Assembly (NCBI GenBank): GCA_032622095.1
Contig: CP136065.1
Span: 208,610,151 to 208,674,150, forward strand
Direction of reading: 5' to 3'
DNA: 64,000 nucleotides
Origin: Siphonodentalium dalli
Taxonomy: Eukaryota; Mollusca; Scaphopoda; Gadilida; Siphonodentaliidae
Each line of letters starts with the position of its first letter. The first letter of the stretch is position 1. The position numbers were made by a program, and so were the translations under genes. Below, piece after piece: positions 5,356 to 51,089 of the stretch. Under the pieces are notes generated by a model. The model ran no database searches and was not told the origin of the DNA. It saw only the letters and a program-made list of their open reading frames with translations.

Positions 5356-5465
5356 TTATAAAGTCAAAATTCATAATTTTTATCTCGAAATTTTGACTTT
5401 TTATCTCAAAATTTGGACTTACCATGTCACAATTTTGACTTTCAAAGTCACAATTTCGACTTTAT
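5356..5465. repeat. Degenerate short tandem repeat of AAAGTCAAAATT type
   Basis: Repeats of TCAAAATTTTGACTTT-like units in both orientations produce a local inverted-repeat tract beside the truncated end of the LINE fragment. Confidence 0.6.
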
Positions 5466-5574
5466 GAAGTAACATGGGGGTGTAACTAAAGACAGACCGG
5501 ACGAGACCGGACCGCCCCTGTGGTGTTTAGGTGTGATAAGCGAGGTATCACGAAAACACGCCTTTCCTTTGAAA

Positions 5575-30610: not shown

Positions 30611-30614
30611 GCAT

Positions 30615-30878
30615 TGTAGTGAAAATGTAAACATTGTGCGGACCAGTTTAATTCTTGTTGGACAGCGCCACCTAGCGGCGCCGGGAACCAAGTGCCAGCT
30701 TCCGGGATCACGTCGGGCAGAACCGAAACTGAATCCAAAGAAGACACATCGTCAAATAATTGTTGTTGCTGTATCCATTGTAATCATCGTATTTCTACAT
30801 ATATTATTCGTGAGTATAATATCCTTTTCTATTCCATATATAATATTCTTACATGTGATACCCCCTATTTTCACATTA
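30615..30878 (+). repeat. 5' LTR of the Ty3/gypsy element
   Basis: Starts TGTAGTGAAAAT and ends ATTTTCACATTA, which are imperfect inverted copies of each other. It matches 46325-46587 except for a few substitutions and a short indel near 30640. The internal region follows with TGGCGTCGTTTCG at 30880, the likely primer binding site; its tRNA is not identified. Confidence 0.92.
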
Positions 30879-31175
30879 ATGGCGTCGTTTCGTTAAAATA
30901 TCGTGCTATTATTAACCCATTTTGCCTTATCCATTTTCGCGTCGACAACGTGTTTTTCTCGCGTTCGTATTTCGATCGTTATCGCGTCGTTCGATATTGT
31001 ATTTCTATTGTATTAAACATATTGGTTTTGTTTATATCTCTGCCTTAGCCTTATATTTGTAGTTTTAGGTAGATTTCGTCTTCTGTCCTGTTACCTTTTT
31101 TCTTTCGGAAAATTGAGTTGATTAATTTTTTTGGTCAATCCCGAATGATATTTTGTCCATACCAGTTATTGCAGT

Positions 31176-33440
31176 ATGTCTGTCAAAATAAAAATCAATG
31201 AAGCTGGTTTGGAGGATTTGACAAAAATTCCACATGTCGATGACTCGATAGCTGTGGCTATAATTTTGAAACGTCTGGAAGTGGTAACTTTATTCAGAGA
31301 TGATTTAGTGAATATCCCGCGTTTTCGTGGGTCACAACAACAATGGTCGGTTATCGATTTCAGTCCAGCGCCATCAGGTACACCCGCCGATAATTGGCTT
31401 CCATTTAAATTGGATCCAACAAAGACATCACATTTCGATGATTATCCAGCGGGGTACGATTCTGGTCAGGCTGCAGCCGAATCGTCAGCTATGCTCAGCC
31501 CCCCCCCCCCCCCACAATCAACAAACACACTTGACTCCGAACAAGAACGGTTGCGTAGATACAATGCCGAAAAATCTTTTATCATGGGCGTCCATGATGT
31601 TATTGAATCACACAAATTAGCAGACGCCACTCGACGAAGGTTGTCGTGGACGCCAGCGAGTCAAAGTACTCATGATACACCACACGGTCTGGTGTCAATG
31701 GCTACTCAATATATGGTAAGTACCCAAGCAGTGACAGGTGCTGCCACGGTAGTCACTCGTGCATCAGGGCCAATTAGTTTTGGGGACACTGTTAAGTCAA
31801 ATACGGTGACCACCCATAGTACTTGGCAGGCAACCGATCAACTGCAACAAGCCATGACATCGGCTATGTCTGCGTTGGGACAACTTCCATCTTTTCAACC
31901 TAGTTTCATGACGACCCAAAGGTCATCAGCTGGGCATCATGACTTGCCTAATCAGGTTGCATCGTTGCCAATACCACAAGCTCCATCTGCTCAGTCAACC
32001 ACCCCAGTCACGCGGTTGTCAATATCAAATGCTATTTTGACAAATCCCAATTACTCGCAGGTCTCATTCACATATACAAACTCCGTAGTACCTGATACCC
32101 GGTTAACGGTGACAAATTATCAGGCGGGTTATGTACCCACAACCAACACGACATTGGGTGTACAGAATAACCTACATATGTCGACATTTGATCTCAGTCA
32201 GCCTCCACCAAATTATGGACGGCATGACCAGCAACTATTCAATACTGTTCCGACATCAAATACTGTTAACGCTCCAGTTGGTTATCAACTTGGACAAATT
32301 CAAACACCGGTTATGCAACCGGGGTGGCAGCAACCATCGGTCATTCATCAACCGGTGATGCAACAACCACCGGTGATGCAACAACCACCGGCGATGCAAC
32401 AACCACCGGCGATGCAACAACCACCGGTGATGCAACAACCACCGGTGATGCAACAACCACCGGTGATGCCACAACAACCGGTGATGCCACAACAACCCGT
32501 GATCCAACAACCAGTAATGCAACAACAACAACAACCGGTGATCCAACCGGTATATCACCAGCCGGTATATCACCAGCCGGTCCTTCCGCATATTGTTCCC
32601 CAGCAACCAGTTTTTCAACCACAACCTCAGGGACCACCCGGTTACCAGGGTCACCCCGAACAGAATCATTGGCAATATGGTAGAGACAGGCGGTTAGCTC
32701 GAATGCCCAAAGGTTTCTTTTATGATGGGGTGGAGGCGTGGAATCCTTTCAAATTAAAATTTGTTAAATATGTGGAATCCCAGCAATGGGGACCGGATGA
32801 GATTAAACAAGCTTTATGTTGGTGCATGAGTGGTAGAGCAAGCGAATATTTCACTTTGCTCACGGAAAGAAACACCGATATTACGTCCGATCAATTATTG
32901 ACTGGGCTTGAAACTCGTTTCGGGCATCATGACTTGCCGGAAACTACACAATTGCAGTTTCAGCAGGACAAACAAGTTCCGGGTCAATCTCTTGATGAGT
33001 GGGCAGAAAATGTCCTATCATTGGCCACCAGGGCATTTCGGGATTGTCCCCCGGACTTTACCTTCAGGCAGGCTGTTTTAAGGTTTTGCCAGGGGTGCTC
33101 GGACACCAGGGCAGCAGAATTGGTCAGTATGGAGATCAACACAACTATGCCGCCATTCATGGCTCCAAAACACCTCGCAGATACGTCAGACGACGAAAGG
33201 ATTCGTGTCGTTAGACCACAGGCTAGAGGGAGGCCAAACAGGTTTCAAGGCAAAGAACCTCATTCATCGGAGTCTGAAGAAGAACATAAACAGGTTCAGA
33301 GGGGAGCGAATCCCAGGTATCGAAATACCGGGGGAATTTTCACTGTGGAAATCTCGCACCCTAGCGCTCGAGACCAGTGTCGAGAGTTTACATCGGAAAT
33401 TGGAGAAGTTGACAGATACAATGTCGAAATTGTTACCTAG
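31176..33440 (+). CDS. gag: Gag polyprotein of the Ty3/gypsy element
   Basis: A 754-residue frame begins after the leader. Residues about 7-38 (INEAGLEDLTKIPHVDDSIA and on) look like a helix-hairpin-helix motif of the ComEA type. A long low-complexity middle follows, with a Pro-Gln-Met repeat (units MQQPPV/MQQPPA) at 32341-32540. The conserved capsid-like block is at 32690-33150 (MPKGFFYDGVEAWNPFKLKF, then SLDEWAENVLSLATRAF, which is typical of gypsy Gag). Past about 33330 the sense frame appears to move: the coiled-coil-like LALETSVESLHRKLEKL and the CCHC knuckle CFSCRDYGHYQKCC (33538-33580) are in the next frame. That is either a gag-pol frameshift or a one-base lesion. Gag packages element RNA in cytoplasmic particles. 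Confidence 0.85.
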   Translation: MSVKIKINEAGLEDLTKIPHVDDSIAVAIILKRLEVVTLFRDDLVNIPRFRGSQQQWSVIDFSPAPSGTPADNWLPFKLDPTKTSHFDDYPAGYDSGQAAAESSAMLSPPPPPQSTNTLDSEQERLRRYNAEKSFIMGVHDVIESHKLADATRRRLSWTPASQSTHDTPHGLVSMATQYMVSTQAVTGAATVVTRASGPISFGDTVKSNTVTTHSTWQATDQLQQAMTSAMSALGQLPSFQPSFMTTQRSSAGHHDLPNQVASLPIPQAPSAQSTTPVTRLSISNAILTNPNYSQVSFTYTNSVVPDTRLTVTNYQAGYVPTTNTTLGVQNNLHMSTFDLSQPPPNYGRHDQQLFNTVPTSNTVNAPVGYQLGQIQTPVMQPGWQQPSVIHQPVMQQPPVMQQPPAMQQPPAMQQPPVMQQPPVMQQPPVMPQQPVMPQQPVIQQPVMQQQQQPVIQPVYHQPVYHQPVLPHIVPQQPVFQPQPQGPPGYQGHPEQNHWQYGRDRRLARMPKGFFYDGVEAWNPFKLKFVKYVESQQWGPDEIKQALCWCMSGRASEYFTLLTERNTDITSDQLLTGLETRFGHHDLPETTQLQFQQDKQVPGQSLDEWAENVLSLATRAFRDCPPDFTFRQAVLRFCQGCSDTRAAELVSMEINTTMPPFMAPKHLADTSDDERIRVVRPQARGRPNRFQGKEPHSSESEEEHKQVQRGANPRYRNTGGIFTVEISHPSARDQCREFTSEIGEVDRYNVEIVT

Positions 33441-34617
33441 CAGTAAGAATTTCGGGGATAGATCACCCCAAACTCCAAATAGAGGGGTTCGGACACCCCC
33501 AATGTCAAGGTCACCCTCACCTCAGTCTAAAGTTCAATGTTTTTCCTGTCGGGATTACGGGCACTATCAGAAGTGCTGCCCCTCAAGAAACACAGTGAAC
33601 CGTGTCAATAAAGATAAAGCTGTTGTTGATACCGCGGCAGATTCAACCATTATCTCAGATAGGTTGTTCCAGTTGTTGGAAGTGAAACCAATGATTATAA
33701 AATCAATGAAATTTAACACTGCTGCCAGGGATAAACACATGTTTGGATGTCTGGTGGGGCCTGTAGAAATTAAAATAGGCGATTTAATATGTAGCGAAAA
33801 TGTGTACGTGGCCCCGATTGAGGAGCAAATGTTATTGGGCATAGATTTTCTTAGAAAATACGATGCACGTATTACAGCCAACACAGGCTCAATTTCCTTG
33901 GGTGAATGTAGGTTGCCTACAATTATATCCAAAGAGGACAGTTCTAGGGTCGCTAGAGTGTGTGTGGCTAACCATAGTGTTATACCTGCGTTGTCTGTAG
34001 TGCGGTTACAGTGTGACATTGACACACTCATTACCGAATTTATGATTGAGCCGAATCATGAATATATTGATCTCGTACTACCAACAGTGCATCATGGTTC
34101 CGAGAGCCCCACGATTTGTTTGATTAATGCAAGCGAAATTGACGTGCACATTAACAAACACGATTGTATTGGGGAAGCCCAAGAAATTGACCAGATATGT
34201 CAACTAGGTGACAAGTCGGTTGAGTGTCAACCTAGGTTACCTGATGAGTCGACACTTACTGACATGACACCTGTGGGTCAGGTGAGCAGGGTGGAATGCA
34301 GTGACGAAACAACAGAGGTTATCTCTGGTTGTTCGGATATGATTCCATGTGAAGTACCACAACTTCCTGAACATATCCAAGCATTATATCAATGCTCGTC
34401 TCAGAATATACCCCAAGAAGAAGCTGCGTGTTTCGCACACTTGTTACTCAAGTATCAAGATGTGTTTGCGAAAGATGTGTTTGCGAAAGACGAGTTTGAC
34501 TTGGGTAATTTTACGGAGATAGAGCATGGCATTCCTCTAATTGAAGGGGCGCGCCCTATTAAACAACCCATGAGGCGCACCCAGCTTGTTTCGTTGGCCA
34601 ATAGGAAGCCCATTTGA
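33205..34617 (+). CDS. pol: Nucleocapsid knuckle and aspartic protease segment of pol
   Basis: This frame overlaps the end of gag by about 236 bases. It carries the CCHC knuckle (CFSCRDYGHYQKCC), then a retropepsin-like core with the catalytic block VDTAADSTIIS (usually D-S/T-G) and the flap-to-end signature LLGIDFLRKYDA. The change from Gly to Ala after the catalytic D-T is unusual but occurs in some gypsy proteases. A linker rich in acidic residues leads to the RT entry (IEHGIPLIEGARPIKQPMRR). The frame ends at 34617 in a frameshift just before the RT palm begins in the next frame. Confidence 0.85.
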   Translation: MSLDHRLEGGQTGFKAKNLIHRSLKKNINRFRGERIPGIEIPGEFSLWKSRTLALETSVESLHRKLEKLTDTMSKLLPSSKNFGDRSPQTPNRGVRTPPMSRSPSPQSKVQCFSCRDYGHYQKCCPSRNTVNRVNKDKAVVDTAADSTIISDRLFQLLEVKPMIIKSMKFNTAARDKHMFGCLVGPVEIKIGDLICSENVYVAPIEEQMLLGIDFLRKYDARITANTGSISLGECRLPTIISKEDSSRVARVCVANHSVIPALSVVRLQCDIDTLITEFMIEPNHEYIDLVLPTVHHGSESPTICLINASEIDVHINKHDCIGEAQEIDQICQLGDKSVECQPRLPDESTLTDMTPVGQVSRVECSDETTEVISGCSDMIPCEVPQLPEHIQALYQCSSQNIPQEEAACFAHLLLKYQDVFAKDVFAKDEFDLGNFTEIEHGIPLIEGARPIKQPMRRTQLVSLANRKPI

Positions 34618-35150
34618 AAAAATTGCTGGAGGCCAAAGTCATTCAGCCATATATTTCTGAATGGGCGTCGGCCCCGGTTCTCGTCAAAAAGCGTGACTCC
34701 ACATTGAGGTGGTGCATCGATTATCGCCGCGTCAACGCTGTTACAAGGAAAGAGGTATATCCATTACCTAGAATTGATGACTGTCTAGATAGCTGGGCCG
34801 GAAATTCATGGTTTGGTAAGGCAGATTGTCTATCTGCGTACCATCAGGTTTCGGTACGGAAAGAAGACCACCCTAAAACCGCATTCCTCACAAAATACGG
34901 GACTTTCGAATACCTTAAAATGCCGTTCGGTTTATTTGTATCGCCGTTATAAATCTTGTACTCCAAGGCCTAAACTGGGACATCTGTTTAGGGTATATAG
35001 ACGATCTGGTTTTGATGGGCGATTCGTTATGTAATCACGGTCAAAACATAGCCACGGTCCTCGCTAGACTTCAAAAGTACCATCTCAAATTGAAGCCTAG
35101 TAAGTGTGAATTTACCAGAAAGAAATTGAATTTCTGGGGAGGACTGTAAG
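34490..35150 (+). pseudogene. pol: Reverse transcriptase segment of pol, frameshifted
   Basis: RT blocks are readable across three frames: IQPYISEWASAPVLVKK and WCIDYRRVNAVTRKEVYPLP, then FGKADCLSAYHQV (first catalytic Asp), FEYLKMPFGL, and after a frame change near 34950 the box GYIDDLVLMGDS (catalytic DD) and LKLKPSKCEF. At least two frameshifts (about 34600 and 34950) and a stop near 35149 break the chain. The order is that of Ty3/gypsy RT. RT copies element RNA to DNA in the particle. Confidence 0.88.
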
Positions 35151-36130
35151 TGGAACTGGCATCACCATGTTGGACTATTCCATAGAATCTGTACAAAATT
35201 GGCCAGAACCAACTTGTACACGAGAAGTCGAGAGTTTCTGTGGACTGGTGAATTACCACCGGAGTTTCATTAAGGGGTATGCCGAGTTGGCTAGGCCATT
35301 GTATAATGTGACTGGAAAAAAGGTTTTTCGATGGGGCGAAGAGCAAGTCATCCTTTGACCAGTTGAAACAGGCCCTAACGTCTCCACCTGTTTTTGGCTA
35401 TGCCAAATCTTTCGGATTGTCGATTGCGGATGCCAGTGGATATGCAATCGGAGGCGAAATGCTGCAAATTCAAAATGGCAAAGAGCGAGTGATCGCATAT
35501 GGCAGTTTCGTGTTGTCACCTCAACAGAAACGGTATTGCGCCACTAGACGCGAGTTGCTCGCGGTGGTGCGACTTACCAGACAATTTCGTTATTATTTGC
35601 TTGGTCGAAAATTTATATTACGAACTGACCATAGCAGCCTCCGATGGATTATGAATTTCAAAGAGCCGCAAGGTCAAATAGCACGATGGTTGGAAGAGCT
35701 TAGCTCCTACGATATGGTTATACAACATCGTAAAGGCTCCCATCACGTAAATGCTGACGCAATATCACGAATACCTATCGGTGAGATTTGCGAGGAATAC
35801 TTTCCCGGCTGTGATCTGAAGGGTCTCCCATGTGGTGGGTGCAAATATTGCACTAGGGTTCACCAAAGCTGGGCCAAGTTTGAAAGTGACGTCGATGATG
35901 TCATCCCATTGACACAAGGCCTCATCACGTTTGAGTCTGACGATGAACAATCTGAGGTGAGACAGGTAAGAAACTCGAGCATGTCCGAAGATTTAGGGTT
36001 ACCCTGGAACCAGGGGGAATCATGGGATAACCCCCCAGACTTTTCGGGGTCCATTTGTCCGATTACCGGATGGACGCATTCCCAATTGGATCTCTTTAGT
36101 TATATACCCCAAACAGATTACCTGATTTGA
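35150..36130 (+). pseudogene. pol: RT connection and RNase H segment of pol
   Basis: 35167-35358 encodes the gypsy connection (VQNWPEPTCTREVESFCGLV, NYHRSFIKGYAELARPLYNV). From 35363 the RNase H domain follows, with IADASGYAIGG, QKRYCATRRELLAVV (catalytic Glu) and LRTDHSSLRWI (catalytic Asp), and the exit phrase HHVNADAISR. After it a Cys-rich insert (CDLKGLPCGGCKYCTR) precedes the integrase. A frameshift near 35358 separates the connection from RNase H, and the frame ends at 36130. RNase H degrades the RNA strand in RNA:DNA hybrids during reverse transcription. Confidence 0.85.
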
Positions 36131-37514
36131 GGGTTAGAACAGTGACCCAGACTGATCAGTCGTTTCTGGCTGATGTATGCAGTCGTGAGGAACTGGCGGA
36201 GGTTCAGCGAAAAGATGCCGATATCGCTCCGATAATTGGGTGGCTAGAGACAGGACGGGAACCCAGTGAAGGTGAACTCTTTCTGTGTAGCGAGGCCACC
36301 AAATATATGTGGATAAACCGGAGCAGGTTTCTTATGAAGGATAATCTTTTATACAAAGTGCGTAGGGGGCTACGTTGTGGTAATTCCGGCAAAGCATGCT
36401 AAAGAAGTTTTGATGTTGGCACATGATATTCCAGCTTTGGGGCATCAGGGAGTCGCTCGGACAATGGAACGTGTGCGCCAAAGTTATTATTGGTATGGGG
36501 TCTCGGACGACATCAAAACTTTTGTGGCATCATGTCCCCAGTGCAATCAAGGTAAGAAAGCCACTAGACAGGCTAAATGGGAACAGGTGATTTACCATGC
36601 AGGCGCCCCTATGGAAAGGGTTCACATTGACTTTCTTGGGCCTCTTACCGTGAGCGAAAAAGGAAATAAATATATATTGGTAATGACTTGTCAATTCACA
36701 AAGTTGGTGGAATTCATTCTGTTGGAGGATCAGACCGTGGAGACAGCTATAATTACTGCAGTGAATGAATTCTTCACGCGATTCGGTTGTCCGTTGCAAA
36801 TTTTCTCAGATCAAGGAGCCTGTTTTGTTTCGAAATTATTCACTGCTATGTGTGAGGCACTCCAAATCCATAAAGCACGTACAACAGCATATCGGCCCTC
36901 CGCGAACGGTGCCGCGGAACGCCAGAATCGTACACTTATGAATGCAATACGATGTTACATCGATAAAAATCAGAAATCATGGGACAAGTACTTACCACAG
37001 CTGGCAGGGGCGATGAGATCTTCCGTTCATCGTCTCACCGGTTTTACGCCAAATAAGATGATGCTGGGCCGTGAGGTTAATCACCCCGCAGATCTTGTTT
37101 ACAATTTTCAACCGAAAGTCGTGGCATTCGAAAATGCAGCAGAGTATGTGCAAAATCTAGTCAAAATATCGAAAGAATGTCATGAAATTGCACGAACAAA
37201 ACTAAAAACTGAAACGGTAAAGGCTAAACGAGATTATGACGTCAGGGCCAATAAATACGCATACAAACTAGGTGATCTGGTGTATTTACTTGACACTGCA
37301 ACAAAAAAGGGGCAAAAATAGAAAATTGTCCCCTTTTTGGAAAGGCCCAGCAATTATCAGTGAAGTGTATACCCCATATTTGTATAAAATACTATTCAAA
37401 AATGCTATTATGGTGGTAAATCACGATCGCCTGAAAAAATGTCATGATCGAATACTGCCTCCATGGCTGAGTAAATGTGTAGATAAATTCCGGGAAACGG
37501 GAGGTAGCTATTGA
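36127..37514 (+). pseudogene. pol: Integrase segment of pol, frameshifted
   Basis: The first part (36127-36402) is the linker LYKVRRGL; after a frame change near 36380 the HHCC finger follows (HDIPALGHQGVARTMERV ... CPQCNQ). The DDE core is present: VHIDFLGPL (Asp), IFSDQGACF (Asp) and NGAAERQNRT (Glu). The C-terminal barrel-like part continues to YKLGDLVYLLD, breaks at 37321 and resumes in the next frame with SPFWKGPAIISEV and VVNHDRLKKC, a typical gypsy end. All catalytic residues are kept, yet two frameshifts split the protein. Integrase inserts the DNA copy into host chromatin; the PHD finger just downstream may be its tail. Confidence 0.88.
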
Positions 37515-37533
37515 AAAGAAAACCGGTAGATTT

Positions 37534-37668
37534 TGTTTATGTCAGCAAAAGTACGGTGGAAAATTTATGCTACAATGCGATTTCTGTGATGAATAGTATC
37601 ATGGGGAATGTGTTAATGTTACTCGGGAGGAAGCAGATAGTCTTGACAATTATAGATGTCCAAAGTGT
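37534..37668 (+). pseudogene. PHD finger downstream of integrase, with one internal stop
   Basis: Directly after the integrase tail, one frame encodes the eight-ligand PHD pattern: C-L-C, then QCDFC, YHGEC, and YRCPKC, with EADSLDNY between, closely recalling PHD fingers that read histone H3 methylation. The position of the conserved tryptophan before YHGEC is a TAG codon (37594-37596), one base from TGG. A frame change separates it from the integrase frame ending at 37514. In the active element the finger was probably the integrase C-terminus and may have guided integration to marked chromatin; that role is inference. Confidence 0.75.
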
Positions 37669-37683
37669 TAAGAAGGCATCATA

Positions 37684-38110
37684 TTGACTCAAATCTTCTG
37701 TTTTCCAGATTCAAACATGAGTGACACAGACAACGACAGCGTGATCTTGAGGTCGGATCATGGCTCGCCACCACCGGATCATGGGTCAGAGAAGGTACAC
37801 GATCAATCACGACCAGCCGTACCAGAGCCCATGAGAGGTGAGACTGTTTTGACAGGGATTATCCCTGCACAAATTGAAATAATGACTGCAACTAAATTGA
37901 GACCAGTAGGCCAGGGATTATCCCAGAGTCAACTGCAGTACTGACCTCAACGCATTTTGAGAACTTAGAGTGGTACGCAGACCGAAAAAGGGTTAACATG
38001 GAAACATATCCTGGATCAGGGGTTGTTGTCACCCCCTCATTTGGAATTGCAGAGTCAGATATGACCTCTCAGGGTTTGCATGCTCATCGTCTCATTCCAT
38101 TTCAGAACCC
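37684..38110 (+). other. Probable upstream part of the accessory ORF, unclear frame
   Basis: A frame with SDTDNDSVILRSDHGSPPPD runs from 37684 to 37944 and another reaches the C2H2 region. They may be the frameshifted N-terminus of the accessory protein. No domain recognised. Confidence 0.35.
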
Positions 38111-41100
38111 ATGGAAGTGGGAAACATGGATCATGTAGGACCGTATGATGCTACGAAGTGTCCAGTGGTGGGATGCGACCAGGACGTGCGCGGCAAGAAA
38201 CGCGAGCATGTCTATAGCACACATCTCAGACCATGCTGGTGGCCCATGAAAAACACCTATGGCACTAGTATACCAAAAGACTTCAGAGATGAAATCAGGT
38301 CTGATTTAAAACATTTCGCCCGTGCATTATGTCCGGCTGACGCATCTCCTGATGACCGTCAAGAGCAGTTATTGCTCAGCCAGCTAAGAAAACGACTTAA
38401 CATTGAATGGGATAGTCAAGCCCTTCCGACTCCGATGGTTATCGGTTCAGGAGCTCGGGATACCATTCGGGCGTTTGGGAAGGATCTCGGCGAAAAAGAG
38501 CCGGGGAGCGGTTATCGCATCTCCCCGTACATCAGCTCCAATGCCTGTCTAGGCCTGTTTTATACGACGTGTGATACACGTGTAACGTTAACTCGTCGTC
38601 AACACGAGTTTTTAACGTTTGATTTATATGACGTGTTAACGTTACACGTGTAATCTAGACTGGCGTCAAGGGACGTAATCCGACTAACTAAAAAGGGAGT
38701 TAACCCATCGTAAACAAATAAAGTCATGTCGTCTGCTATAAATCTACGACATCTTGTCCTTCTAAAACTATTACGGATGCGCGCTGAGCGTACAAAACGC
38801 AATGGAATTATTCTCATGCTTTTGCGTCAAAGGGAGTTAATGTTGAGAACATTAATGTTGTCAGTATCTCAACTGTATATGCAATTGTGTGCCCCTAGGG
38901 AGCAAAATCGGTCATGCCGACGCCTTCTTCGAAACCAGGGTTGGTTCGAAACAGTCAATGCCTATGGCGACAGACACTTCAAAAAAACATTTCGAATTAG
39001 TCGGGGGACTTTTAACCACATCCTTGACAATATTCGTCACCATCTCGTCAAGAATGAGCTCGTAGAAGACCCAATTGGCCCCGAAGAACGTTTTGCAATA
39101 GGCATCTACCGTTTAGCCAGGGGCGATTACTACTATACCATTTCCCAAATGACGGGTCGTGGAATAGCAACGGTTAGAAATATCACAAAGGAAGTTTGCG
39201 ATGCCATTGTTGCCGTCCTGTGGGAAGAAAATGTCACCAAATACACCCCCAAATCACAGGAACAAACTCGCGATGCATTGCTGGATATGCATGAAATGTG
39301 GCAGTATCCTTTCGCGTGGGCGGCTGTCGATGGGTGCCACATTCCGATTAAGTGCCCATCGGGGGGCAAAGAGTCACAGAAAGAGTACCACAACTTCAAG
39401 AACTTTTATAGTATAGTACTCATGGCCATGGTGGTCAAGATATCGATTTGTTTGGGCGTCGTGCGGCTTCCCCGGAAATTCACATGACTCTAACATTTTT
39501 CAGTCGACCGAAATGTGGAGTGATTTGTCAGAAGGGCGAGCAGTGGCAAGTGTAGTGACGAACGAAAATGACAACCTTGAAATTCCGCCACAAATTATAG
39601 GGGACTCGGCCTTTCCCATTAAGAAATGGTTGATGAAACCATATTCCAATGCAGTGTTGTCCGAAGAGGAGAGTTACTTTAATTACAGACTGAGTCGTGC
39701 TAGAATGGTGATCGAGGGAGCGTTTGGACAGCTAAAAGGTCGATGGCGTGTAACACAACGTAAAAACGAGTGTGCACCAGCTCAAGTAAAAATGTCGGTG
39801 CTTGCGTGCATCGTGTTGCACAACATTTGTATAGCCAGGGGTGACTCCGTGTCAAAAAAATTTGACATGAGTTTGGATCCAATGACGCAGGAAAGACGAC
39901 CAAGGGAGGTGATCGAAGACCTACTCCATTTAATTCCATGCGAGCCCACTAGAGATAACGATCGCGGAGGTGCAGCATTGAGGGATGCAATCAAAGACAA
40001 ATTCTGGGTAGAAAAAACCTCAATGTAGACATTGTATTGATTGTAGGCTAATGCCATAATTATTAAAAATAGATGCATACCGGTACCTTGTCTGTGTATA
40101 GTCTAAAATACACCACCCACGTATTAATAGACCAGTTGGTTCCAACGTCATAATTATGTGATGCAGTAGTTCTGTCAACAACTTTCAAGCTCTAACCTGC
40201 CTTGGTAATAATAGTGTAATTCTTTTATGATTTTTTTCAAATTCTGATTTGAATTCGCTGATTCTTATATTGAAGTATGTATCACCTTTGTAATGATATC
40301 ATGTGAATTTCCTGTTGTACGAACTTTTATCTTGCATAACACTAGTGGTGTATACCAATAAATATAACATGGATTTTTCTGTGATATTTGAATCCTATTT
40401 CAAGTGGGTTCATGTGATATATCTTAACTTATTAGGCAGGTGAGAGTATACCAGAACGAGAGGCCGATAACGATCGGCAGATGTTTAACCCATACCTTGG
40501 CGATAGTGATCAGCTATTTTCAGTTCGGACACGAAAATCCATAAGCCATAACTATGTTTAAAATATAAAAAAAATGGATCAAACCCAAATTCGAAATCTA
40601 CATGTATCTGTATTTTGGGCTGAGAAACTCACATACAAAATTCTCTCTCAGTGCTAACTGATATCACAGGGGTTAGCTGCTATGGTTCTACATGATAAGC
40701 ATACAAATATTGAATCTGTTCAATCCTTAGTTAAAAAGGGCCATAACTCTGGAATAAAAAACAGGATCTAACCCATATTCAAACTTGATCTGTATTTTGA
40801 GTTGAGAAACTCATACCAAATTTGGTTCCTATCAGACGATAACTGGTTGATCTATCGAAGCATGGATGAATTCTATATCAAAGGGCCATAACTCCATTAA
40901 AATAAAACTGATCAAACCCATATTCGAACTCGAACTGTATTTTAGATAGAGAAACTCACATACCAAATTTGGTTCTCATCAGATAACATTTTTTTTAGTT
41001 ATCGTAGCATCCATGAATTCTAAGTCGAAAAAGGGCCATAACTCCGTAAAAAAAACTCGAATCAAACCCATATTCGAACTCGGTCTGTATTTTGGTCTGA

Positions 41101-44100
41101 GAAACTCATATACAAAATTTAGTTATGATCAGATAGAAAATATTTGAGTTATCGGACCATGCATAAAGTGTCTACGGACAGACGGACAGACGAACGAACG
41201 ACAAGTGGTCAATCCGGACGTCGACATTATGTTTACCATACTATGGTATGGGTAAACATAAAAACTAACACAACACATTGGTTGGATATACCATTTCCAT
41301 TTCAAAGATGAGTCTAGTGTCAATCATTATGGTGGGCAATTAATGCAATACTCTGGGATGCGGTTGTGGTTTTCTTAACTGGCATAAACAGACTATGGAT
41401 TGCGGTTTGACAGTTTCGCATCGGAATCATCAACACGTTGTTATATGGTACATATTAATGTTAGGCCTTCTATTGTATTTCATTCACGGTTCTTAAATGC
41501 ATTGTGTGGAGTGTGATTTTGCCTTCAAAAGTTCAAATGCCAAATGATCAAAAATGCACCAATGAGTATATATGAGTATATACATGTATGTCGATATGAG
41601 AAAGACATATATACTAAATTGTGCAGTATACAAGTCCGACAAAATATTTGGAAGCATAAATAGGCAGCAGTACTTGGTTACAATATCATAAAACTGCATC
41701 GCAGAGTATTGCAAAAATTGCTCACATATCATTATTTACCAACCATCCTATGATCCCAAGGTCAAAATGAAACAACAATATTATTTTACATTTGGTAATA
41801 AGTATTGTTACTGGTATTATTATTGAATTGATCAAATTGGTCAAACAAATTTCGTTCAACATTCGCATTAGCTGCAGTGCCTGGCCCTGTCCTAGTGGAA
41901 CCATACTCATGTCTCTGCAGCAACTCCAAAACCTTCAGTTCATGTGCCCTTGATCGCTCGGCTTCCTCCTTCATGTACGAGAGGATGTCCTTCGTTGTGT
42001 CTGCCTCAACTGCCTTCTTGACGACGTCAATACACTCCGCAATCATATCCGGAATTTTTCGCTTTTGCGCCTTCCTGACGGGAGTGAATAAAGGTACACT
42101 GCCCGGCTCCTCACCACTTGCTGCCGCAGTACTCGCTGTCGCAGTACTCGCTACCGCAGTACTCGCTACCGCAGTACTCGCTGCCGCAGTACTCGCTGCC
42201 GCAGTAGGCCTAGCAGACGGCTCTACAGCCAGGTCCGGCTGACACGATTCTCTAGCTTTTACAAGCTGAAATAGTGTTTGAAACCATGGTCCGTACCCCT
42301 TTTCTTCTTCAAACCTGGCGATGCCAGATGACGTTTTTATCCGCAAAGCAGTGCTCTTGCACATCGAGATAAGGCTTTTGAATTTGTTACGTATTTGAGT
42401 GACGTTTAGACCGAACTCTGGGTGACGACGTAGTAGCTGCTCCCTGACCTGTTCATAGGCAGCCGAGTTCTGCTGTTTTTTTTGTGTTCGTGTATATTAG
42501 TTTACGTTTCAGGTTTTCCGAGCCGGAGATGATGTCAACGAGATCCGTGATATATCTCTCCACCCAGTTCGCACGTCCGGGCTCCACCGCAGTCCCATGC
42601 TCTTCGACTTCATCAACAGACAACCTGAAGAAGAAAAAATAGTTTATGGTCACTATACTAGTACCGGTACTAACTAAACTAAGTCAACAATCTCAACACT
42701 ACTTACTAGTACACTAGTACAGTTAGCACAATATCGGTATTTGTAACAGTACCAATTTATTAGTAGTCTAAGCCTATTAAATGTTTATTTCATTGAAAAT
42801 AAAAGTATAGCCTAAATCAGTAAATGTGACAATCATGAATCCATGATGTTATTCAAATTCAATTACATGTACAATTGCCTGAATTGGCATGGATTGGATT
42901 AGAGCAAATTCCACTCAAAACTCGCTAAAGCCTAAATGCTTGCTTGTAGTAGCCCGCGCTATGGCAGTAGGCTATGACCTAGGATTGGATGTAAATTGTA
43001 ATTTGTAAACATGAAAAATACACAATTCAGAATCAAATTGAATATCAGATTCAAGAATATAATTACTCTTGTAAGCCGAGGCCGACACTATAGATACACT
43101 AGTATTACTATTCATCTTGTCAATAATTTGATTTTGATTTAAATTGATATTGAATGAATGAACTTATAAATCACCTTCAAGTTTCAACAGACAACAATCA
43201 TGAATCAACTTGAAGTTGAACTTGAAACTAATGAAAGTTGAAGAGAAATAACTCTATATTTTTCTTGAAATGTCCGCGACATTTAAATTAATTCTTCTCG
43301 TTATTACGCTATATATATTCAATAGGTCTACGTTAAACATAGGTATGTCTGTGATTATTGTTATCTGAAAAATATAACGTTTTAGCCTGTTTCGGGAATA
43401 TTCTTCTAAAAGTACATTTCTGACAATTTGATTCATTTTTGAATGTTTTCAATTTTCTTTTAAATTCGCAAAGATACGCGCAAATGCTAATAACAATAAC
43501 GTCATCGTTTTCCCCACATATATACGCAATGAGACATGCCATAATGGCGTGTTGGGACTTACAAAGAATCGTCCAAATCTGCGACAGTGTGCGTTAACAT
43601 TCGTCCCGATTCAACTATTTGTTGTTCAGACGCCATTGTTGTTGTTGTGTTGAATATTCCTCCGTAAAATCGGAGCACCCTGTGTTGACAGGTAATGTTC
43701 TGTATTAAAATGGTTGTTGAGTTTATCCTCTGATTGTATCCTTGAATAATCACATTATATAAGCACAATAAATCACAAGTCGGATGAGTTAGTGGAGAGT
43801 TAGTATGAAGATACTATATTTTCAATCAACAAGTGATATCGATTTCAGTACAGCCCGACAAAAACAAGTTGTCATAACTCTTCTGCGCATGTGCGATCGC
43901 CCTGGGGCTCAAAATGGGGTGAAATATTATGCCATATTGTGTTCCGTTACTCGTGTCATACCCGTCGTATAAATCAGCGACGCGTAATTGACGAACAAGT
44001 GATGAGTTACGCGTCCAGGCCAGTCGTGTAATACGTCGACACGTGTAAGGACGAATTTCGACGAGTATCGTGGTTTTATACGACGTGTAACACACGATCA

Positions 44101-45510
44101 ATTGCCGACTCTCTTATTTAACCAGGAAAATAGTCAGTTATACACGTGTATCACACGTCGTATAAAACAGGCCTAATCCATTGGCGGGTATTGGTAGCGA
44201 TCCTAAATAAAATAACCAAGGAGCAACGTGATGCGTTTGCACATTCTAGGATTGAATTATGGATGATCGATATGATGAGAAACAGAGTGTTCCAGGGATA
44301 CATCCCATCCTCAGATATTGAGGAGGCACGAGAGGTCATCACTATAGGAATGTGGCCGGAGGAAGCCCCAGATGGGATTGTGGCAGCAATCTTGATTCAG
44401 GACGCTTACCGGAAAACTGAAAGCCATAATAAGAAGCATCCACGGGATCAGTCCAACAGACGGAGTTACAAACGATGTCGGCCTAATGCTCCAGTATCTA
44501 GTGCGAGTGAGATTAGGAGGCCGGAGAGGTCACGAACCAGTAAATCCTCGGTTGTCGAGGTTAAACAAAGTTCGTCGAACCAGTCTAGTAGGGATAGTCG
44601 GCAAAGGTCACGAGCAGGTAAATCCTCGGTTATCGAGGTGAAAAGCTCGAATCAGGAACCGAGGATGCCGTGCATTGATGCACATTTCCACCGCGATAGG
44701 ATGTGCGTCGCCTTCAAACAACCTCCACATACATCAACGGTGGACTTGTGTCGAAGAGCAAATGTGCGCGTTCACCACAAAGTTAATGTGGTTGGCGGAA
44801 TCGAGGTCCACTGTGATCCAGAGACCTACCCCGTTATCGGGGATTTGACAGCCAATCCACACTGGAGAGTGGCAGTTGGCTGTCACCCCAAGAAATATGA
44901 GCAGTTGAAAGCGCCCGAACAAATGGCTGCCCTGCGAGCATTAGCACAACATCCGGCGGTTATCGCAATCGGAGAGATTGGGCTGGATCGATCAATTCCC
45001 AACTTGAATGAGCAGGCCATGATTCAACAGGACGAAATTTTTCGGGAGTTGTTATCTTTGGGCCGATTCTTTAACAAACCAATCATCATGCACCTAAGAG
45101 GACCGCAAGGGAAGTCGCTAGGACATGGTGTGAGTTTTACGGCGCTGGAAATCGTACAGACTCAGACACATCTGGATCAGGTACTCCATTATCACTGTTT
45201 CACTGGCACCAAACATGCAGTGCATGCTTGGACCCACAACAGGCCAAACACATATTTTGGATACACGGGAGCCTGTGCACGTTTCAGCGAGCTTCAGAAA
45301 GGGGTGCGTGCAGTTCGTTTAAACCGGCTGCTACTAGAGTCAGATGCGCCACATTTTCCTACGGAAGGGCGTGATCATACCACTCCAGAGGTAATTGGTG
45401 AAGTGGCAATGGAACTGGCCCGTATTTTGAATATGGACGTGCAAGAGATTCTTTCCATCACTGCGGCGAATGCCAAGGATGTTTACGGAATCCACCTGCC
45501 ACATGTTTAG
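38111..45510 (+). CDS. Accessory C2H2-TatD protein of the Ty3/gypsy element, split by a transposon
   Basis: The 5' part (38111-38551) encodes a C2H2 finger (CPVVGCDQ ... EHVYSTH) and a helical segment (LLLSQLRKRLNIEW). The 3' part (44173-45510) continues in register and, after a basic Ser-rich linker, ends in a TatD-family domain: IDAHFHRD (metal HxH), VAVGCHPKKY, AIGEIGLD (metal Glu), PIIMHLRG (His), LHYHCFTGT (His) and LLLESDAP (Asp), finishing ANAKDVYGIHLPHV. All metal ligands expected of TatD-type metal-dependent hydrolases are there. Between the parts lies the Harbinger element 38552-44172 with its CTA duplication; without these 5,624 bases the two parts share one frame. TatD enzymes are DNases, so a role in trimming or copying element DNA is possible but inferred. 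Upstream coding may extend before 38111. Confidence 0.8.
38726..40028 (+). pseudogene. Harbinger DDE transposase, one frameshift
   Basis: The N-terminal part (38726-39430) has FKKTFRISRGTFNHILDNI and a helix-turn-helix-like ISQMTGRGIATVRNITKEV, then AWAAVDGCHIPIKCP with the first catalytic Asp. Near 39432 the frame slips: the phrase YRFVWASCGFPGNSHDSNIF is read in the other frame, which joins to the downstream part (39513-40028). There GDSAFPIKKWLMKPY carries the second Asp and SRARMVIEGAFGQLKGRW the Glu. The length and order fit the DDE_Tnp_4 family. It cuts and pastes the element together with the Myb-like protein. The slip would remove the second and third catalytic residues unless it is a sequencing error. 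Confidence 0.9.
40436..41262 (+). repeat. Core-repeat element inside the Harbinger transposon
   Basis: Starts with AACGAGAGGCCGATAACGATCGGCAG (partial hairpin, given in part), holds about four diverged units containing AAAGGGCCATAACTC and CAAACCCATATTCGAACTC, then a GACAGACGGACAGA tract and a terminal hairpin around TGTTTACCATAC/GTATGGGTAAACA. The same parts occur at 55485-56690 and 56995-57255. Core repeats plus a GACG-type microsatellite plus a terminal hairpin resemble the pearl/HINE elements of bivalves; that assignment is inference. Confidence 0.65.
41263..41785. other. Harbinger interior between the two genes, nothing seen
   Basis: AT-rich DNA between the core-repeat element and the end of the Myb-like gene. 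No coding frame is supported. Confidence 0.5.
41786..43636 (-). CDS. Harbinger Myb/SANT-like DNA-binding protein, two exons
   Basis: Exon 1 runs from ATG at 43636 (MASEQQIVESGRMLTH...) to 43563 with donor GTAAGT; exon 2 starts at 42624 after CTTCTTCAG, and the phases agree. Exon 2 encodes the Myb-like trihelix: RANWVERYITDLVDIISG, then across a slip in an eight-A run near 42476 NSAAYEQVREQLLRRHPEFG and VTQIRNKFKSLISMCK, then GPWFQTLFQLV. An Ala-Ser-Thr repeat (AVASTAVASTA-type, 42115-42215) and a C-terminal helical segment (ECIDVVKKAVEADTTK, ELKVLELLQRHE) follow. In PIF/Harbinger elements this protein binds the ends and recruits the transposase. The A-run slip may be a sequencing error. Confidence 0.8.
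42660..43556. other. Intron of the Harbinger Myb-like gene
   Basis: AT-rich with several ACTAGTAC-like repeats near 42655-42725; no coding frame is supported. Confidence 0.55.
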
Positions 45511-46324
45511 ATGCTCTCTAATGAATAGTGCAACCCCGGTTGTCGGGGGTTTGCAAAGTCTGAGTAATAAGGTAATGCAATGAAAAATTTTCTCGGATAC
45601 AATCCCGGTTATCGGTAGATAATTTATTAACCATTTTCTGGACAACATTTATGCAAGAACTAAGTCATTTGGATTGTCATGGAACACGTGGTGACGCCGG
45701 TTATCGTTGGGTTACAACTTCACCATCGGCTTTCTAAATAACTATGAAATAATTCCGGTTACCGTAGAATTATTGATCAGTCGTTTTGTCGGATACTTTT
45801 TCATGTAGGGACATGTTAAGAGTCCACTCTTGGCTGTGCACCAACTTGAGAAATTGTAGTCATAACGTCTTTCATGTAGGGACCTGTTAAGGATCCGCTC
45901 TTGGCCGTGCACCCACATGAGAACTTGTAGTCATAAAGTTTTTCAAAATTCGGATATTAGCACGTAGATTATCTATTTAGGTCCAATTAACCGCTTTTCT
46001 GAAAACTTTCCAAATTTCCGAAAAGAGTGGATTTCCAGAACAATTCATACATCACCAATCACCCATGTTGAAACCTACCTTGTAAACCAACCTGGTTCGG
46101 TATTATTATTTTTCTATACTACTCCGGCATTCACAGAATGTTGAGAAATCTTTTGTATATATATCAGCTGTATATTGTAAACCGGCTAGGTATGGCCCCA
46201 AAATTTTGGTTGGTTCATTTGAATGAGTGTTTTCCGAATGTTGGACCAGACTGAGTATGTTTGATATTCATGGATTAGTGTTCACACCTACCCTGGACGT
46301 TTCATTATTTGAAGAAGGGAATAG
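45511..46324. other. Ty3/gypsy 3' untranslated region and polypurine tract
   Basis: Holds a tandem pair of about 68 bp (TTTCATGTAGGGAC.TGTTAAG...TTGTAGTCATAA at 45800-45867 and 45868-45935) and several CCGGTTATCG-like phrases. GAAGAAGGGAATA (46312-46324) immediately before the 3' LTR is the likely polypurine tract for plus-strand DNA priming. Confidence 0.65.
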
Positions 46325-46587
46325 TGTAGTGAAAATGTAAACATTGTGCGGTCAGATTAATTCTTGTTGGACAGCGCCACCTAGCGGCGCCGGGAACCAA
46401 GTGCCAGCTTCCGGGATCACGCCGGGCAGAAACGAAACTGAATCCAAAGAAGACACATCGTCAAATAATTGTTGTTGCTGTATCCATTGTAATCATCGTA
46501 TTTCTACATATATTATTCAGGAGTATAATATCCTTTTCTATTCCATATATAATATTCTTACATGTGATACCCCCTATTTTCACATTA
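46325..46587 (+). repeat. 3' LTR of the Ty3/gypsy element
   Basis: Direct repeat of 30615-30878 with the same termini, followed by GCAT. Differences include ACCAGTTT/TCAGATT near position 30 and CGTGAG/CAGGAG near position 200 of the LTR. Confidence 0.92.
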
Positions 46588-46599
46588 GCATCAGCACAA

Positions 46600-48809: not shown

Positions 48810-49954
48810 ATGTCAAAAGTAAATGCTATGAATGAAGATGAAGTCTCTGACTTACTTCAAGCATTTGGAGAATTGCATGTCAAGCCAAGAGCTTCAAATG
48901 CAGAAGAGTTGAAGGCCTGGATTTGTGATTTTGCGAAACAAAGTATAAAAGATGAACCACATAAGTAAATTCCAAGTAAATCTGGAACTCAATTTATTGT
49001 GTCACAACCACCGCAGTTGTCTTTGTTTTTCGGAAACTCGAAAGGCGAAGCATCTTATGATGTGTGGCGATACGAGGTATCATGTTTAAAGGCCCAACAT
49101 ACCGACCGTGATATGATTGATCAGGCCATCAGGTCTCTGAAAGGGGAAGCAGGCCAAATAGCCATGCGACTTGGTTCCCATGCTGATGTTTATGAAATTT
49201 TACATAAACTTGACAGCATATATGGATTCGTTGAATCTATTGAGACCGTCTTTGCGCAATTTTATAGTGCCAATCAGGCAGATGATGAGTGACTCAATGG
49301 GCTTGCGGATTGGAGGACATTTTAAGTAAGGCCACACAAATGAATGTGCCCCTCCCTGAAGATCCTAATCAGATGTTGCGCACAGCGTTTTGGCGGGGAT
49401 TAAAACAAAACTTGAGGGATATAAGTGGTCACAAGTTCGATCTGATTAAAGATTTTGATGAGTTGAGAGTATTGATGCGCCAAATTGAGCAAGACCAGAT
49501 TAATGTTAATGGGGATAAACTAAAGAGAGCAATTGTTAAACAAACCCAATCAAATACATCTGAAGTTAGTGAGTTAAAATCAATGGAGCGAGAGTTAGTG
49601 AATGATGTTAAAACTATGAAAAAAGAACAACATGAATTTCAGCAACAGCATCAGAGTCAACAATTGGGGCAACAAACATCTGGTAGGTATAATTATAACC
49701 CTCAACAAACATCTGGTATGTATAATTATAACCCTCAACAACAGCATGGTAAGTATAACTATAATAACCCAGTCCCTCAACATCAATCAAGTTACTCCCG
49801 AAATGATGATACAAAGCCAAAGACTTATGATAATAAGTATGGAGCTTCCAATCAAAGAGAGATTACCTGCTTTAAGTGTAATCAACCTGGCCACATTGCT
49901 AGATATTGTATTGTGGGACAAACGAGTATTCGCGGACGCGAAACAGAGATTTAG
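48810..49954 (+). pseudogene. gag: Gag of the second Ty3/gypsy element
   Basis: ATG at 48810 (MSKVNAMNEDEVSDLLQAFG) opens a frame with one stop at 48966-48968. The capsid-like block PPQLSLFFGNSKGEASYDVW and AIRSLKGEAGQIAMRLG follows, and after a slip near 49285 the chain resumes with MTQWACGLEDILSKATQM. A Gln-Tyr-Asn repeat (SGRYNYNPQQT units, 49675-49770) precedes the CCHC knuckle CFKCNQPGHIARYC (49870-49911). Typical gypsy Gag of the kind with a single knuckle; inactive here. Confidence 0.85.
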
Positions 49955-50570
49955 GTCGGGAAACTTCCGTCGCCCTATGGGTCGTCCCATAGGTAAACAT
50001 GTACATACAAAGTCCCTTAATCAGTCTAAGATTGATTCTTCTGATTTAGTTTCCACTATAAGTTGGACCTTTTTCAAAACCAATTTCAATACTCCCATAT
50101 TATCTTTAATTGAAATTCTAAATGTTGAATATGCTGATGGACAGCCTTTGCCATATAAAGGTTGCATTGAAGTGGAAGTTGAAATTGAGTTTATGTCAAT
50201 CAAATGTGAGACAAAAGTGTATATTGCTTGTCGTCAATGATTGTAATTTTAATAGGGTTGTACCTGTGCTTCTTGGAACCAATGTCTTGTCTGATCAGTG
50301 CATAGCTAAGTGTGGTGATAGATATTTACATCAGGTTGATAGGTCAGCTTGGCATACAGCTTTTACTGCATGTCTTTAAGGCAACGTGCCTTATGTAAAA
50401 GTCATAATCGGTTAGCCTTAGTCAAAAGTGCTGATACTTCAAATTTCAGTTTACCTCCAAACATTCAGGTAACTGTCAAGAGGTTACCTCACCAAAAAGT
50501 TGTCATATCAGCCTACGTGTGCCATAGTACAGCCCGTTACTCAAAATAATTGGATGAAAGATTTTAGATG
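49955..50570 (+). pseudogene. pol: Protease region remnant of the second Ty3/gypsy element
   Basis: Two overlapping frames carry ILNVEYADGQPLPYKGCIEV and PVLLGTNVLSDQC, the strand-and-LLGxNxL end of gypsy aspartic proteases. The catalytic Asp block is not clear, because stops and frame changes disturb the first half. Confidence 0.65.
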
Positions 50571-50578
50571 TTACTCCA

Positions 50579-51010
50579 ATGATTTTCAGTTATAATTTTA
50601 ATGGTGGAATTGAAACTTTACCAATACAGTTGACTAATGTCTTATCAAGAACAATTGTTGTTCCACCAAATGCAATTCTTTGCTTGGTGCAACCTGTACA
50701 GTGCGATATAGTAAAGGATAAACCTATTGAGACAACTGGTATTAATGATATAGACATGCCAAACACACTTACTAATTCACAGTTAGAACAAACTTTGAAC
50801 TTGGTTAAAACATATGACGATGTTTTCTCTACAAACGATCAAGACATTGGTTTCACATCTCTTGTTAAGCACAGAATTAATATGACAGATGACACTCCCT
50901 TTAAACTGCGACACAGGCGAATACCTCCGTCGATGTTTGAAGTTCGGAATCATATAAATGAATTGTTGTCAGCAGGTATAATAGAGAATTCTCATAGTCC
51001 TTGGGCATCC
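50579..51010 (+). pseudogene. pol: RT N-terminal fragment of the second Ty3/gypsy element
   Basis: The frame has VVPPNAILCLVQPV, YDDVFSTNDQDIG, HRINMTDDTPFKLRHRRIPP and VRNHINELLSAGIIENSHSP WASN (read in two parts), the entry to a gypsy RT. The palm with the catalytic Asp residues is missing because the element ends here. Confidence 0.88.
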
Positions 51011-51089
51011 AACATCAACGGGCGCGTTTCCGTATACTGGGAACAACGCAAGGCCTTCACAACCGGTGATCTATAACCTGGCAATTAAT

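What the first reader, a model, noticed from the sequence alone, without database searches (positions are those of the whole stretch)
38111..45510. Ty3/gypsy retrotransposon carrying a C2H2-TatD nuclease accessory gene
Seen: between two matching LTRs with a GCAT duplication, and on the same strand as gag-pol, an ORF encodes a C2H2 finger and a TatD domain with every expected metal ligand (HxH, Glu, His, His, Asp). Known: TatD proteins are metal-dependent DNases. Inferred: the element acquired a nuclease that could process cDNA ends, remove flaps or act against host or competitor DNA. I know of no described gypsy lineage defined by such a gene, but cannot search.
Basis: partly seen in the sequence, partly recalled or inferred. 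Interest (0 to 1): 0.88.

Follow-up and report, generated by a model that had tools for sequence, protein, structure and literature searches.

The report
Gypsy retrotransposon lineage carrying TatD nuclease
A large family of retrovirus-like jumping genes in this animal genome carries, besides its usual copying genes, an inherited third gene for a zinc-finger TatD-type nuclease (sometimes fused to an RNA-end-modifying enzyme); the copy first noticed is broken, but many relatives look intact.

Summary
The window holds a Ty3/gypsy element (30615-46587; LTRs 97.3% identical, GCAT duplication) with a C2H2-TatD gene between pol and the 3' LTR, as reported. The gene is not one ORF here: a 5.6-kb PIF/Harbinger-like DNA transposon (about 38552-44172) splits it into C2H2 (38111-38551) and TatD (44176-45510) pieces, and pol is frameshifted. 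The lineage claim holds. In the same 2.2-Gb genome, 111 of 154 listed integrase places have a TatD place downstream on the same strand within 9 kb (shifted positions: 0.08). Integrase and TatD trees of 12 families share 8 of 9 splits. TatD is under purifying selection (dN/dS about 0.06-0.12 in informative pairs), with all six expected metal ligands in 14 of 14 element sequences aligned (picked from strong TatD matches). Beyond the finding: pol ends in a PHD finger; four families fuse a Tpt1/KptA domain to C2H2-TatD; one further family keeps the gene with one of six ligands. No paper seen describes TatD or KptA in LTR retrotransposons (Repbase/GyDB not searchable). Function is inferred: most likely a nuclease acting on the element's own RNA or RNA:DNA intermediates; counter-defence is open.

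The parts
30615..30878 (+). 5' LTR, preceded by GCAT (30611-30614), followed by a TGGCGTCG primer-binding-site-like sequence at 30880
   Evidence: sequence; self-alignment 97.3% over 264 columns to 46325-46587
31149..33440 (+). gag ORF (HhH-like N-terminus by eye, PNMA-like part), with an 18-nt coding repeat 32310-32561
   Evidence: ORF; repeat; PF14893 PNMA E 6.9e-6; HhH judged by eye beside L019/L023
33082..34617 (+). aspartic protease part of pol, in a frame overlapping gag; RT motifs follow in several frames
   Evidence: gag-asp_proteas E 2e-7; frames (RT motifs by eye)
35312..36130 (+). RNase H region of pol
   Evidence: RT_RNaseH E 1.1e-28
36338..37514 (+). integrase, in two frames (36338-37321 and 37272-37514) in this copy
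   Evidence: Integrase_H2C2 E 4.2e-18, rve E 3.7e-12
37520..37672 (+). PHD finger ending pol, with an in-frame stop in this copy
   Evidence: translation (by eye); homologous finger in relatives: PF00628 E 1.6e-9 in L022, motif in 16 of 20 loci
38111..38551 (+). ORF3 piece 1: C2H2 finger and first part of the helical region
   Evidence: no Pfam hit; uninterrupted counterpart in L030
38552..44172 (.). PIF/Harbinger-like DNA transposon inserted into ORF3, flanked by CTA; the 35-nt perfect inverted repeats as reported run 38550-38584 and 44141-44175
   Evidence: inverted repeat I1; DDE_Tnp_4 E 3.5e-22 (39417-40028); empty site in L030-L032
44176..45510 (+). ORF3 piece 2: rest of helical region, low-complexity stretch and TatD domain (44674-45507)
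   Evidence: TatD_DNase E 1.6e-37; metal ligands; PDB TatD relatives
46325..46587 (+). 3' LTR, preceded by a purine-rich tract, followed by GCAT (46588-46591)
   Evidence: sequence

Best explanation
The C2H2-TatD gene is ORF3 of a Ty3/gypsy lineage, in the position where other gypsy elements may carry env: LTR - gag - pol(PR-RT-RNaseH-INT-PHD) - ORF3 - LTR. It has been inherited together with pol across the sampled families (shown by congruent trees). The protein has a C2H2 finger and a helical domain, a disordered linker and a metal-dependent TatD nuclease barrel; four families add a Tpt1/KptA domain in front. Most likely working (inferred): the finger/helical part binds the element's nucleic acid or its particle, and TatD trims or cuts RNA, or RNA in RNA:DNA hybrids, or cDNA ends during replication. 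The window copy itself is a relic: ORF3 is split by a DNA transposon and pol is frameshifted.
Against: No activity was measured. In the L039/L042/L043 family ORF3 is open (753-754 aa, near-identical copies) but the TatD domain keeps one of six ligands, so catalysis is not needed for retention there. Descent from TATDN2 was not tested (no vertebrate TATDN2 sequence was at hand). 43 of 154 integrase places had no listed TatD, although the TatD lists were incomplete, and from the TatD side 110 of 224 had a listed integrase. L023-type TatD branches apart from the other 13; one origin is neither shown nor rejected (p-AU 0.274). Pairs with few changes give ratios of 0.15-0.35 or none.
Confidence: 0.6

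Rival explanations
1. ORF3 is a counter-defence or competition factor: it acts on host small-RNA, repair or sensing pathways, or on rival elements, not on the element's own replication intermediates.
For: ORF3 evolves much faster than pol (window vs L027: integrase 86%, TatD 63% identity; N-terminal part dN 0.46 vs integrase dN 0.04 for L021/L028), as host-facing proteins often do. TRPT1 (Tpt1) is reported to ADP-ribosylate phosphorylated RNA ends (abstract of PMC6582358), which would fit disarming of RNA with 5' phosphate.
Against: Fast change may be relaxed constraint of linkers; synonymous divergence is also higher in ORF3 than in integrase (L025/L028 dS 2.76 vs 0.81), which suggests recombination or saturation. 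No host target is known.
Confidence: 0.25
2. TatD in ORF3 is mainly a structural or binding scaffold and the nuclease activity is secondary or already lost in places.
For: L039, L042 and L043: open ORF3 with the first His of HxH, Glu, both later His and Asp replaced; L040: degenerate TatD-like domain in a broken ORF3.
Against: All six ligands are kept in 14 of 14 aligned sequences from other families, with low dN/dS in informative pairs; the sample was picked from strong TatD matches.
Confidence: 0.12
3. Passenger: a captured host TatD gene without function in the element, or a host gene that merely lies next to gypsy sequence.
For: The genome has host-like CCCH-TatD genes (L001, L004, L005).
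Against: Recurrent fixed position and strand in many insertions, congruent trees and purifying selection.
Confidence: 0.03

Closest known systems
Ty3/gypsy (Metaviridae) elements with chromodomain-tailed integrase (chromoviruses)
   Same: LTR-gag-pol order PR-RT-RNaseH-INT, 4-bp target duplication, a histone-reader-type domain after integrase
   Different: The tail is a PHD finger, not a chromodomain, and a third gene (C2H2-TatD) follows; chromodomain as a known accessory domain is stated in PMC6338049 (part 1 of 4 read)
Retrotransposons with env or other accessory genes (errantivirus-type; DnaQ-like exonuclease; helicase)
   Same: An extra gene or domain beside gag-pol, inherited with the element
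   Different: Here it is a TatD nuclease with C2H2 and, in four families, Tpt1/KptA; DnaQ-like exonuclease and helicase as accessory domains are from PMC6338049; the errantivirus comparison is recalled
TatD / TATDN1 / TATDN3 nucleases (1yix, 6l25, 2y1h, 2xio)
   Different: C2H2 plus helical domain in front, located in a retrotransposon, about 19-24% identity
Bivalve TatD proteins (P0001 Pinctada, P0005 Mactra, P0008 Mercenaria, the last named TATDN2) and unnamed P0002-P0004
   Same: One side of a branch (97) with 13 element TatDs; P0001-P0004 share the C2H2-helical-TatD layout
   Different: Their genomic context could not be seen; they may be ORF3s of related elements or host genes
Tpt1/TRPT1/KptA RNA 2'-phosphotransferase, including the KptA/TPT homologues reported in gammabaculoviruses
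   Same: Element domain matches TRPT1 chains (7yw2, E 8e-31); RH, R, HGT, IHF and GxR positions kept in the four families aligned; KptA in a mobile/viral genome has a precedent (passage of PMC3230848)
   Different: Fused to C2H2-TatD within a retrotransposon ORF; the ten proteins (oysters where named) show PF01885 and no TatD in the precomputed domains

Membership tests
Ty3/gypsy LTR retrotransposon | direct LTRs with short target-site duplication | tested here: met
   window 97.3% LTRs, GCAT; L019, L022, L023 likewise with TTAT, ATAT, ATAT read by eye
Ty3/gypsy LTR retrotransposon | pol order protease - RT - RNase H - integrase | tested here: met
   window pieces (RT by eye only); protease, RNase H and integrase in that order in relatives by tblastn. 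No RT phylogeny against named gypsy clades was made
Chromovirus (chromodomain integrase) | chromodomain after integrase | tested here: not met
   PHD finger instead: PF00628 E 1.6e-9 in L022, motif in 16 of 20 loci; no chromodomain Pfam hit for the L022 piece, the one tail scanned
TatD nuclease family | Pfam TatD_DNase match above cut-off | tested here: met
   window piece 129.7 bits, cut-off 27; twelve of twelve further ORF3s
TatD nuclease family | metal ligands HxH, Glu, His, His, Asp | tested here: met
   14 of 14 aligned element sequences incl. window (HxH partly preselected); exception: family L039/L042/L043 keeps one of six. That these residues bind metal is recalled from the TatD family
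TatD nuclease family | nuclease activity | not testable with these tools
   no biochemistry
TATDN2 orthologue | descent from animal TATDN2 | tested here: inconclusive
   groups with one TATDN2-named bivalve protein, P0008, but no vertebrate TATDN2 sequence was available
Tpt1/KptA | Pfam PTS_2-RNA match and conserved RH, R, R residues | tested here: met
   L009, L014, L015, L018 families, E 7e-32 to 7.6e-48; residues. The catalytic roles of these residues are recalled. The window pieces have no such domain
PIF/Harbinger transposon (the insert) | DDE_Tnp_4 transposase, Myb-like second ORF, terminal inverted repeats, 3-bp duplication | tested here: inconclusive
   DDE_Tnp_4 E 3.5e-22, 35-nt inverted repeats, CTA on both sides; the second ORF 41786-42496 had no Pfam match

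The most novel reading that the evidence does not exclude
A retrotransposon lineage with its own RNA-processing arsenal: a PHD-tailed integrase that steers insertion to marked chromatin, and an ORF3 in which a Tpt1/KptA domain modifies (ADP-ribosyl-caps or dephosphorylates) RNA ends while a C2H2-guided TatD RNase degrades RNA or hybrids, so that the element both completes its own replication and disarms host small-RNA (5'-phosphate dependent) silencing. One branch then turned TatD into a catalytically dead binding domain.
Probability: 0.15. Interest if true: 0.93.

Novelty: new variant of a known kind. Interest (0 to 1): 0.78.

Why it matters
It would be a Ty3/gypsy lineage defined by an inherited nuclease gene in the place of env, with an RNA-end enzyme in some families and loss of the active site in at least one, all inside one genome with many open-frame copies. 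That makes a long-standing question (what do extra genes of LTR retrotransposons do?) testable with purified enzymes. It also suggests that some 'TATDN2-like' gene models in mollusc genomes may be retrotransposon ORFs.

Tried and rejected
Rejected: (1) one continuous ORF at 38111-45510. (2) Chance linkage. (3) Recent independent captures: no well-supported conflict between integrase and TatD trees. (4) Host gene next to a gypsy: see rival 3. Not resolved: whether L023-type TatD has the same origin. Led nowhere: the family-alignment protein search found nothing at E 1e-8 among 7990 candidates, perhaps swamped by low-complexity words; the IMG/VR scan gave 2 distant TatD loci, not followed; the PHD mention in a Culex paper is a neighbouring host gene. 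The structure searches matched the TatD part; the helical domain was not folded or searched alone. The L013/L014 integrase dN/dS row is invalid (frame disruption in L013) and was dropped. In one search I labelled L007 and L008 'host', but they belong to the L023 element family; they were left out, with two long-branched bacterial rows. P0002-P0004 were labelled 'mollusc' there though their source is unnamed. The TatD lists include CCCH-TatD genes and L023-type copies. A specificity control with clearly unrelated gypsy lineages was not made.

Literature: searches (listings seen, the best 6-25 of each). One search (TatD + gypsy + LTR retrotransposon) returned 0 papers; no title or abstract start in the other lists describes TatD or KptA in LTR retrotransposons, but those lists show only part of up to 1,009 papers. 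Passages were read of PMC10294476 and PMC8905726 (0 occurrences of 'tatd'), PMC6962438, PMC4120745, PMC3286476, PMC10707325, PMC12709183, PMC5408686 (a TATDN2 retrocopy, unrelated), PMC4053983 and PMC3230848 (KptA homologues in gammabaculoviruses; the word retrotransposon only in a reference); part 1 of 4 of PMC6338049; abstract of PMC6582358. Repbase and GyDB were not searchable, so prior description there is not excluded.
Full report
What is in the window. The element runs from 30615 to 46587, flanked by GCAT on both sides, with LTRs of 264 and 263 nt that are 97.3% identical. Between them lie gag (31149-33440; PNMA match E 6.9e-6), protease, RNase H and integrase pieces on the same strand, and RT motifs (by eye) scattered over several frames. 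Integrase is in two frames, and a PHD-type finger just behind it (about 37520-37672) holds a stop. So this copy is a relic.

The C2H2-TatD 'ORF' is split. The C2H2 piece runs into the left inverted repeat of a DNA transposon, and the TatD frame comes out of its right inverted repeat; the arms (38550-38584 and 44141-44175) are 35 nt and 100% complementary. The insert encodes a DDE_Tnp_4 transposase (39417-40028, E 3.5e-22) and has a second ORF on the other strand without a Pfam match. Three relatives of the same family (L030, L031, L032; 87-97% identical next to the insertion point) are contiguous across it, with two or three shared bases; L030 has one open frame of 779 aa that includes both C2H2 and TatD. 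Uninterrupted copies therefore exist.

Recurrent linkage. A Pfam TatD search of the genome (2.23 Gb, 9 contigs) gave 529 candidates, 150 scored, all 150 over the cut-off; many lie in open frames of 700-1492 aa. I fetched 20, chosen for long ORFs and spread over families, not at random: 19 of 20 have the window-type integrase upstream on the same strand at 44-86% identity. For a less hand-picked test I used only coordinates: 122 merged integrase places against 203 merged TatD places gave 82 of 122 with TatD downstream within 9 kb, against 0.075 for shifted positions, and 3 of 122 with TatD in another arrangement. Adding (entries judged new by eye) gave 111 of 154, against 0.08 (maximum 2 in 300 shifts), and 4 of 154 in another arrangement; seen from TatD, 110 of 224 have a listed integrase upstream. 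All lists are capped (4,595-4,784 integrase and 529-781 TatD candidates, 95-150 scored per search). Of the integrase places without a listed TatD, one was fetched as L029 and does carry C2H2-TatD, and one as L043, which carries a degenerate TatD-like domain.

Anatomy of the lineage. In 16 of 20 loci a PHD-finger motif is found, in the intact ones at the end of the pol ORF; Pfam PHD E 1.6e-9 for L022. The exceptions are L017 (a deletion that fuses pol and ORF3 into one frame of 2082 aa), L019 (pol lost) and L023/L024 (a more distant family). ORF3 follows, 513-1492 aa apart from that fusion. In five family pairs (L009/L010, L013/L014, L015/L016, L017/L018, L021/L025) it ends 0.55-0.87 kb before the point where homology between the copies stops; in L023/L024 homology stops before L023's 3' LTR, and in L011/L012/L026 it runs on to the end of the fetched stretch. 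LTR pairs: L023 99.6% over 223 nt, L022 99.7% over 381 nt, L019 100% over 196 nt, with 4-bp duplications ATAT, ATAT and TTAT read by eye; for L021 no LTR pair was found in the stretch fetched, and for L017 only 45 nt. TGGCG-type primer sites follow the 5' LTR in L017, L019 and L022, a different one (TTGGTGTCAG) in L023. L019 is a deletion form in which a gag-like HhH start is fused in frame to ORF3 and pol is missing; its C2H2 has lost the cysteine part.

Tpt1/KptA fusion. Pfam finds PTS_2-RNA (Tpt1/KptA) ahead of TatD in four families: L009 (E 7e-32), L018 (1.6e-44), L014 (2.5e-41), L015 (7.6e-48); not in L011, L019, L020, L021, L022, L023, L027, L028 or the window pieces. The best solved relatives are TRPT1 chains (E 8e-31). 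The genome holds 83 such matches (150 of 154 candidates scored; 73 merged), of which 33 have a TatD place within 5 kb downstream on the same strand, against 0.017 for shifted positions; 28 of 46 near full-length ones (TatD list of 203). The ten proteins found elsewhere with this domain (oysters where named) show no TatD in their precomputed domains (three read). KptA homologues are reported in gammabaculoviruses (passage of PMC3230848), so such an enzyme in a parasite genome has a precedent.

A family with a dead active site. L039, L042 and L043 (PHD finger present; pol frame 1434 aa) have open ORF3s of 753-754 aa whose TatD-like domain keeps only one of six ligands (second His of HxH); L041 of the same family is disrupted, and L040 of another family carries a degenerate domain in a broken ORF. 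The three open copies are too alike for a useful dN/dS (whole ORF3: 1.22, 0.35, 0.28 from 6-9 changes per pair). This counts against a universal need for catalysis.

Inheritance and selection. Trees of integrase and TatD share 14 of 16 splits over 19 copies and 8 of 9 over 12 families; random trees share at most 4 of 9 in 5000 trials; the one difference (L009+L013 together in integrase) has support of only 40/62 on the TatD side, and one search recovered it in both trees. TatD dN/dS: 0.060 and 0.056 (window vs L030, L032), 0.096 and 0.092 (L031 vs L030, L032), 0.118, 0.079, 0.087, 0.104 (L009/L010, L011/L026, L012/L026, L013/L014), 0.094 and 0.086 with saturated dS (L021, L025 vs L028); higher with few changes: 0.151 (L030/L032), 0.306 (L021/L025), 0.351 (L023/L024), 0.353 (window/L031, 22 changes); three pairs have 0-1 changes and five are saturated in dS, without a ratio. 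The window/L031 pair compares two copies of which at least the window's is broken, and L031's frame lacks the C2H2 pattern, which fits decay. ORF3 changes faster than pol, in dN and apparently in dS, so recombination between pol and ORF3 among close families is possible.

Relatives elsewhere. Of the eight best protein hits, the three with named sources are bivalve (Pinctada, Mactra, Mercenaria). Six of the eight were put in a tree and fall on one side of a branch (97) with 13 element TatDs, some between element families, so they may be ORF3s of such elements; context could not be seen. L023-type TatD groups apart with P0009, but one clade of all elements plus these six is not rejected (p-AU 0.274), nor is one clade of the 13 alone (0.102). 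The host is probably a mollusc or other lophotrochozoan (inference from these hits).

Function. TatD enzymes are reported to cut DNA and RNA (E. coli TatD, passage); [quoted passage not shown] An LTR element makes RNA:DNA hybrids and RNA primers, so help with RNA removal or end trimming is the simplest role. TRPT1 is reported to ADP-ribosylate phosphorylated RNA ends (abstract), which together with the fast evolution of ORF3 leaves counter-defence open. Neither is shown here. Identity and lineage linkage I hold at about 0.95; the replication role by itself at about 0.4-0.6. Mending the facts for this version did not require changed odds.

Noticed in passing
window 38552-44172: PIF/Harbinger-like DNA transposon with 35-nt perfect inverted repeats nested in the gypsy ORF3; transposase split over two frames, second ORF on the minus strand.
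   Followed up: partly
L039, L042, L043 (and L040): Family of the same lineage whose ORF3 keeps the C2H2-like start, HWR region and TatD-like domain but only one of six metal ligands: a pseudo-nuclease in near-identical copies.
   Followed up: partly
L009, L014, L015, L018 ORF3: Tpt1/KptA RNA 2'-phosphotransferase domain fused ahead of C2H2-TatD; 83 matches genome-wide.
   Followed up: partly
L022:4476, L027 and 14 other loci; window 37520-37672: PHD finger at the end of pol with a CD.C..W[YF]H-like pattern; by recall this resembles histone-methyl-lysine readers, so it could steer integration.
   Followed up: partly
L019 (G000:C3:116660901-116670800): Deletion derivative: identical 196-nt LTRs, TTAT duplication, gag-like HhH start fused to ORF3, no pol; keeps TatD with all ligands.
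   Followed up: partly
gag N-terminus: window 31149 ORF, L019, L023, L024: HhH-like motif at the gag N-terminus by eye and pattern; Pfam HHH hits for L019 only, below cut-off.
   Followed up: no
L001, L004, L005: Host-like single-frame TatD genes with a CCCH-type finger; L004 and L005 are near-identical.
   Followed up: no
window 24038-26400: Long 57-bp tandem array that is open in frames on both strands.
   Followed up: no
window 5448-6968 (-) and 49289-51076 (+): By eye: LINE-like reverse transcriptase ORF and a fragment of another gypsy element.
   Followed up: no
PMC6962438 figure legend: The giant squid Hox cluster is reported with TATDN2, ZMYM1 and POGK among its non-Hox genes; in view of this lineage the TATDN2 model may be a transposon ORF.
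   Followed up: no
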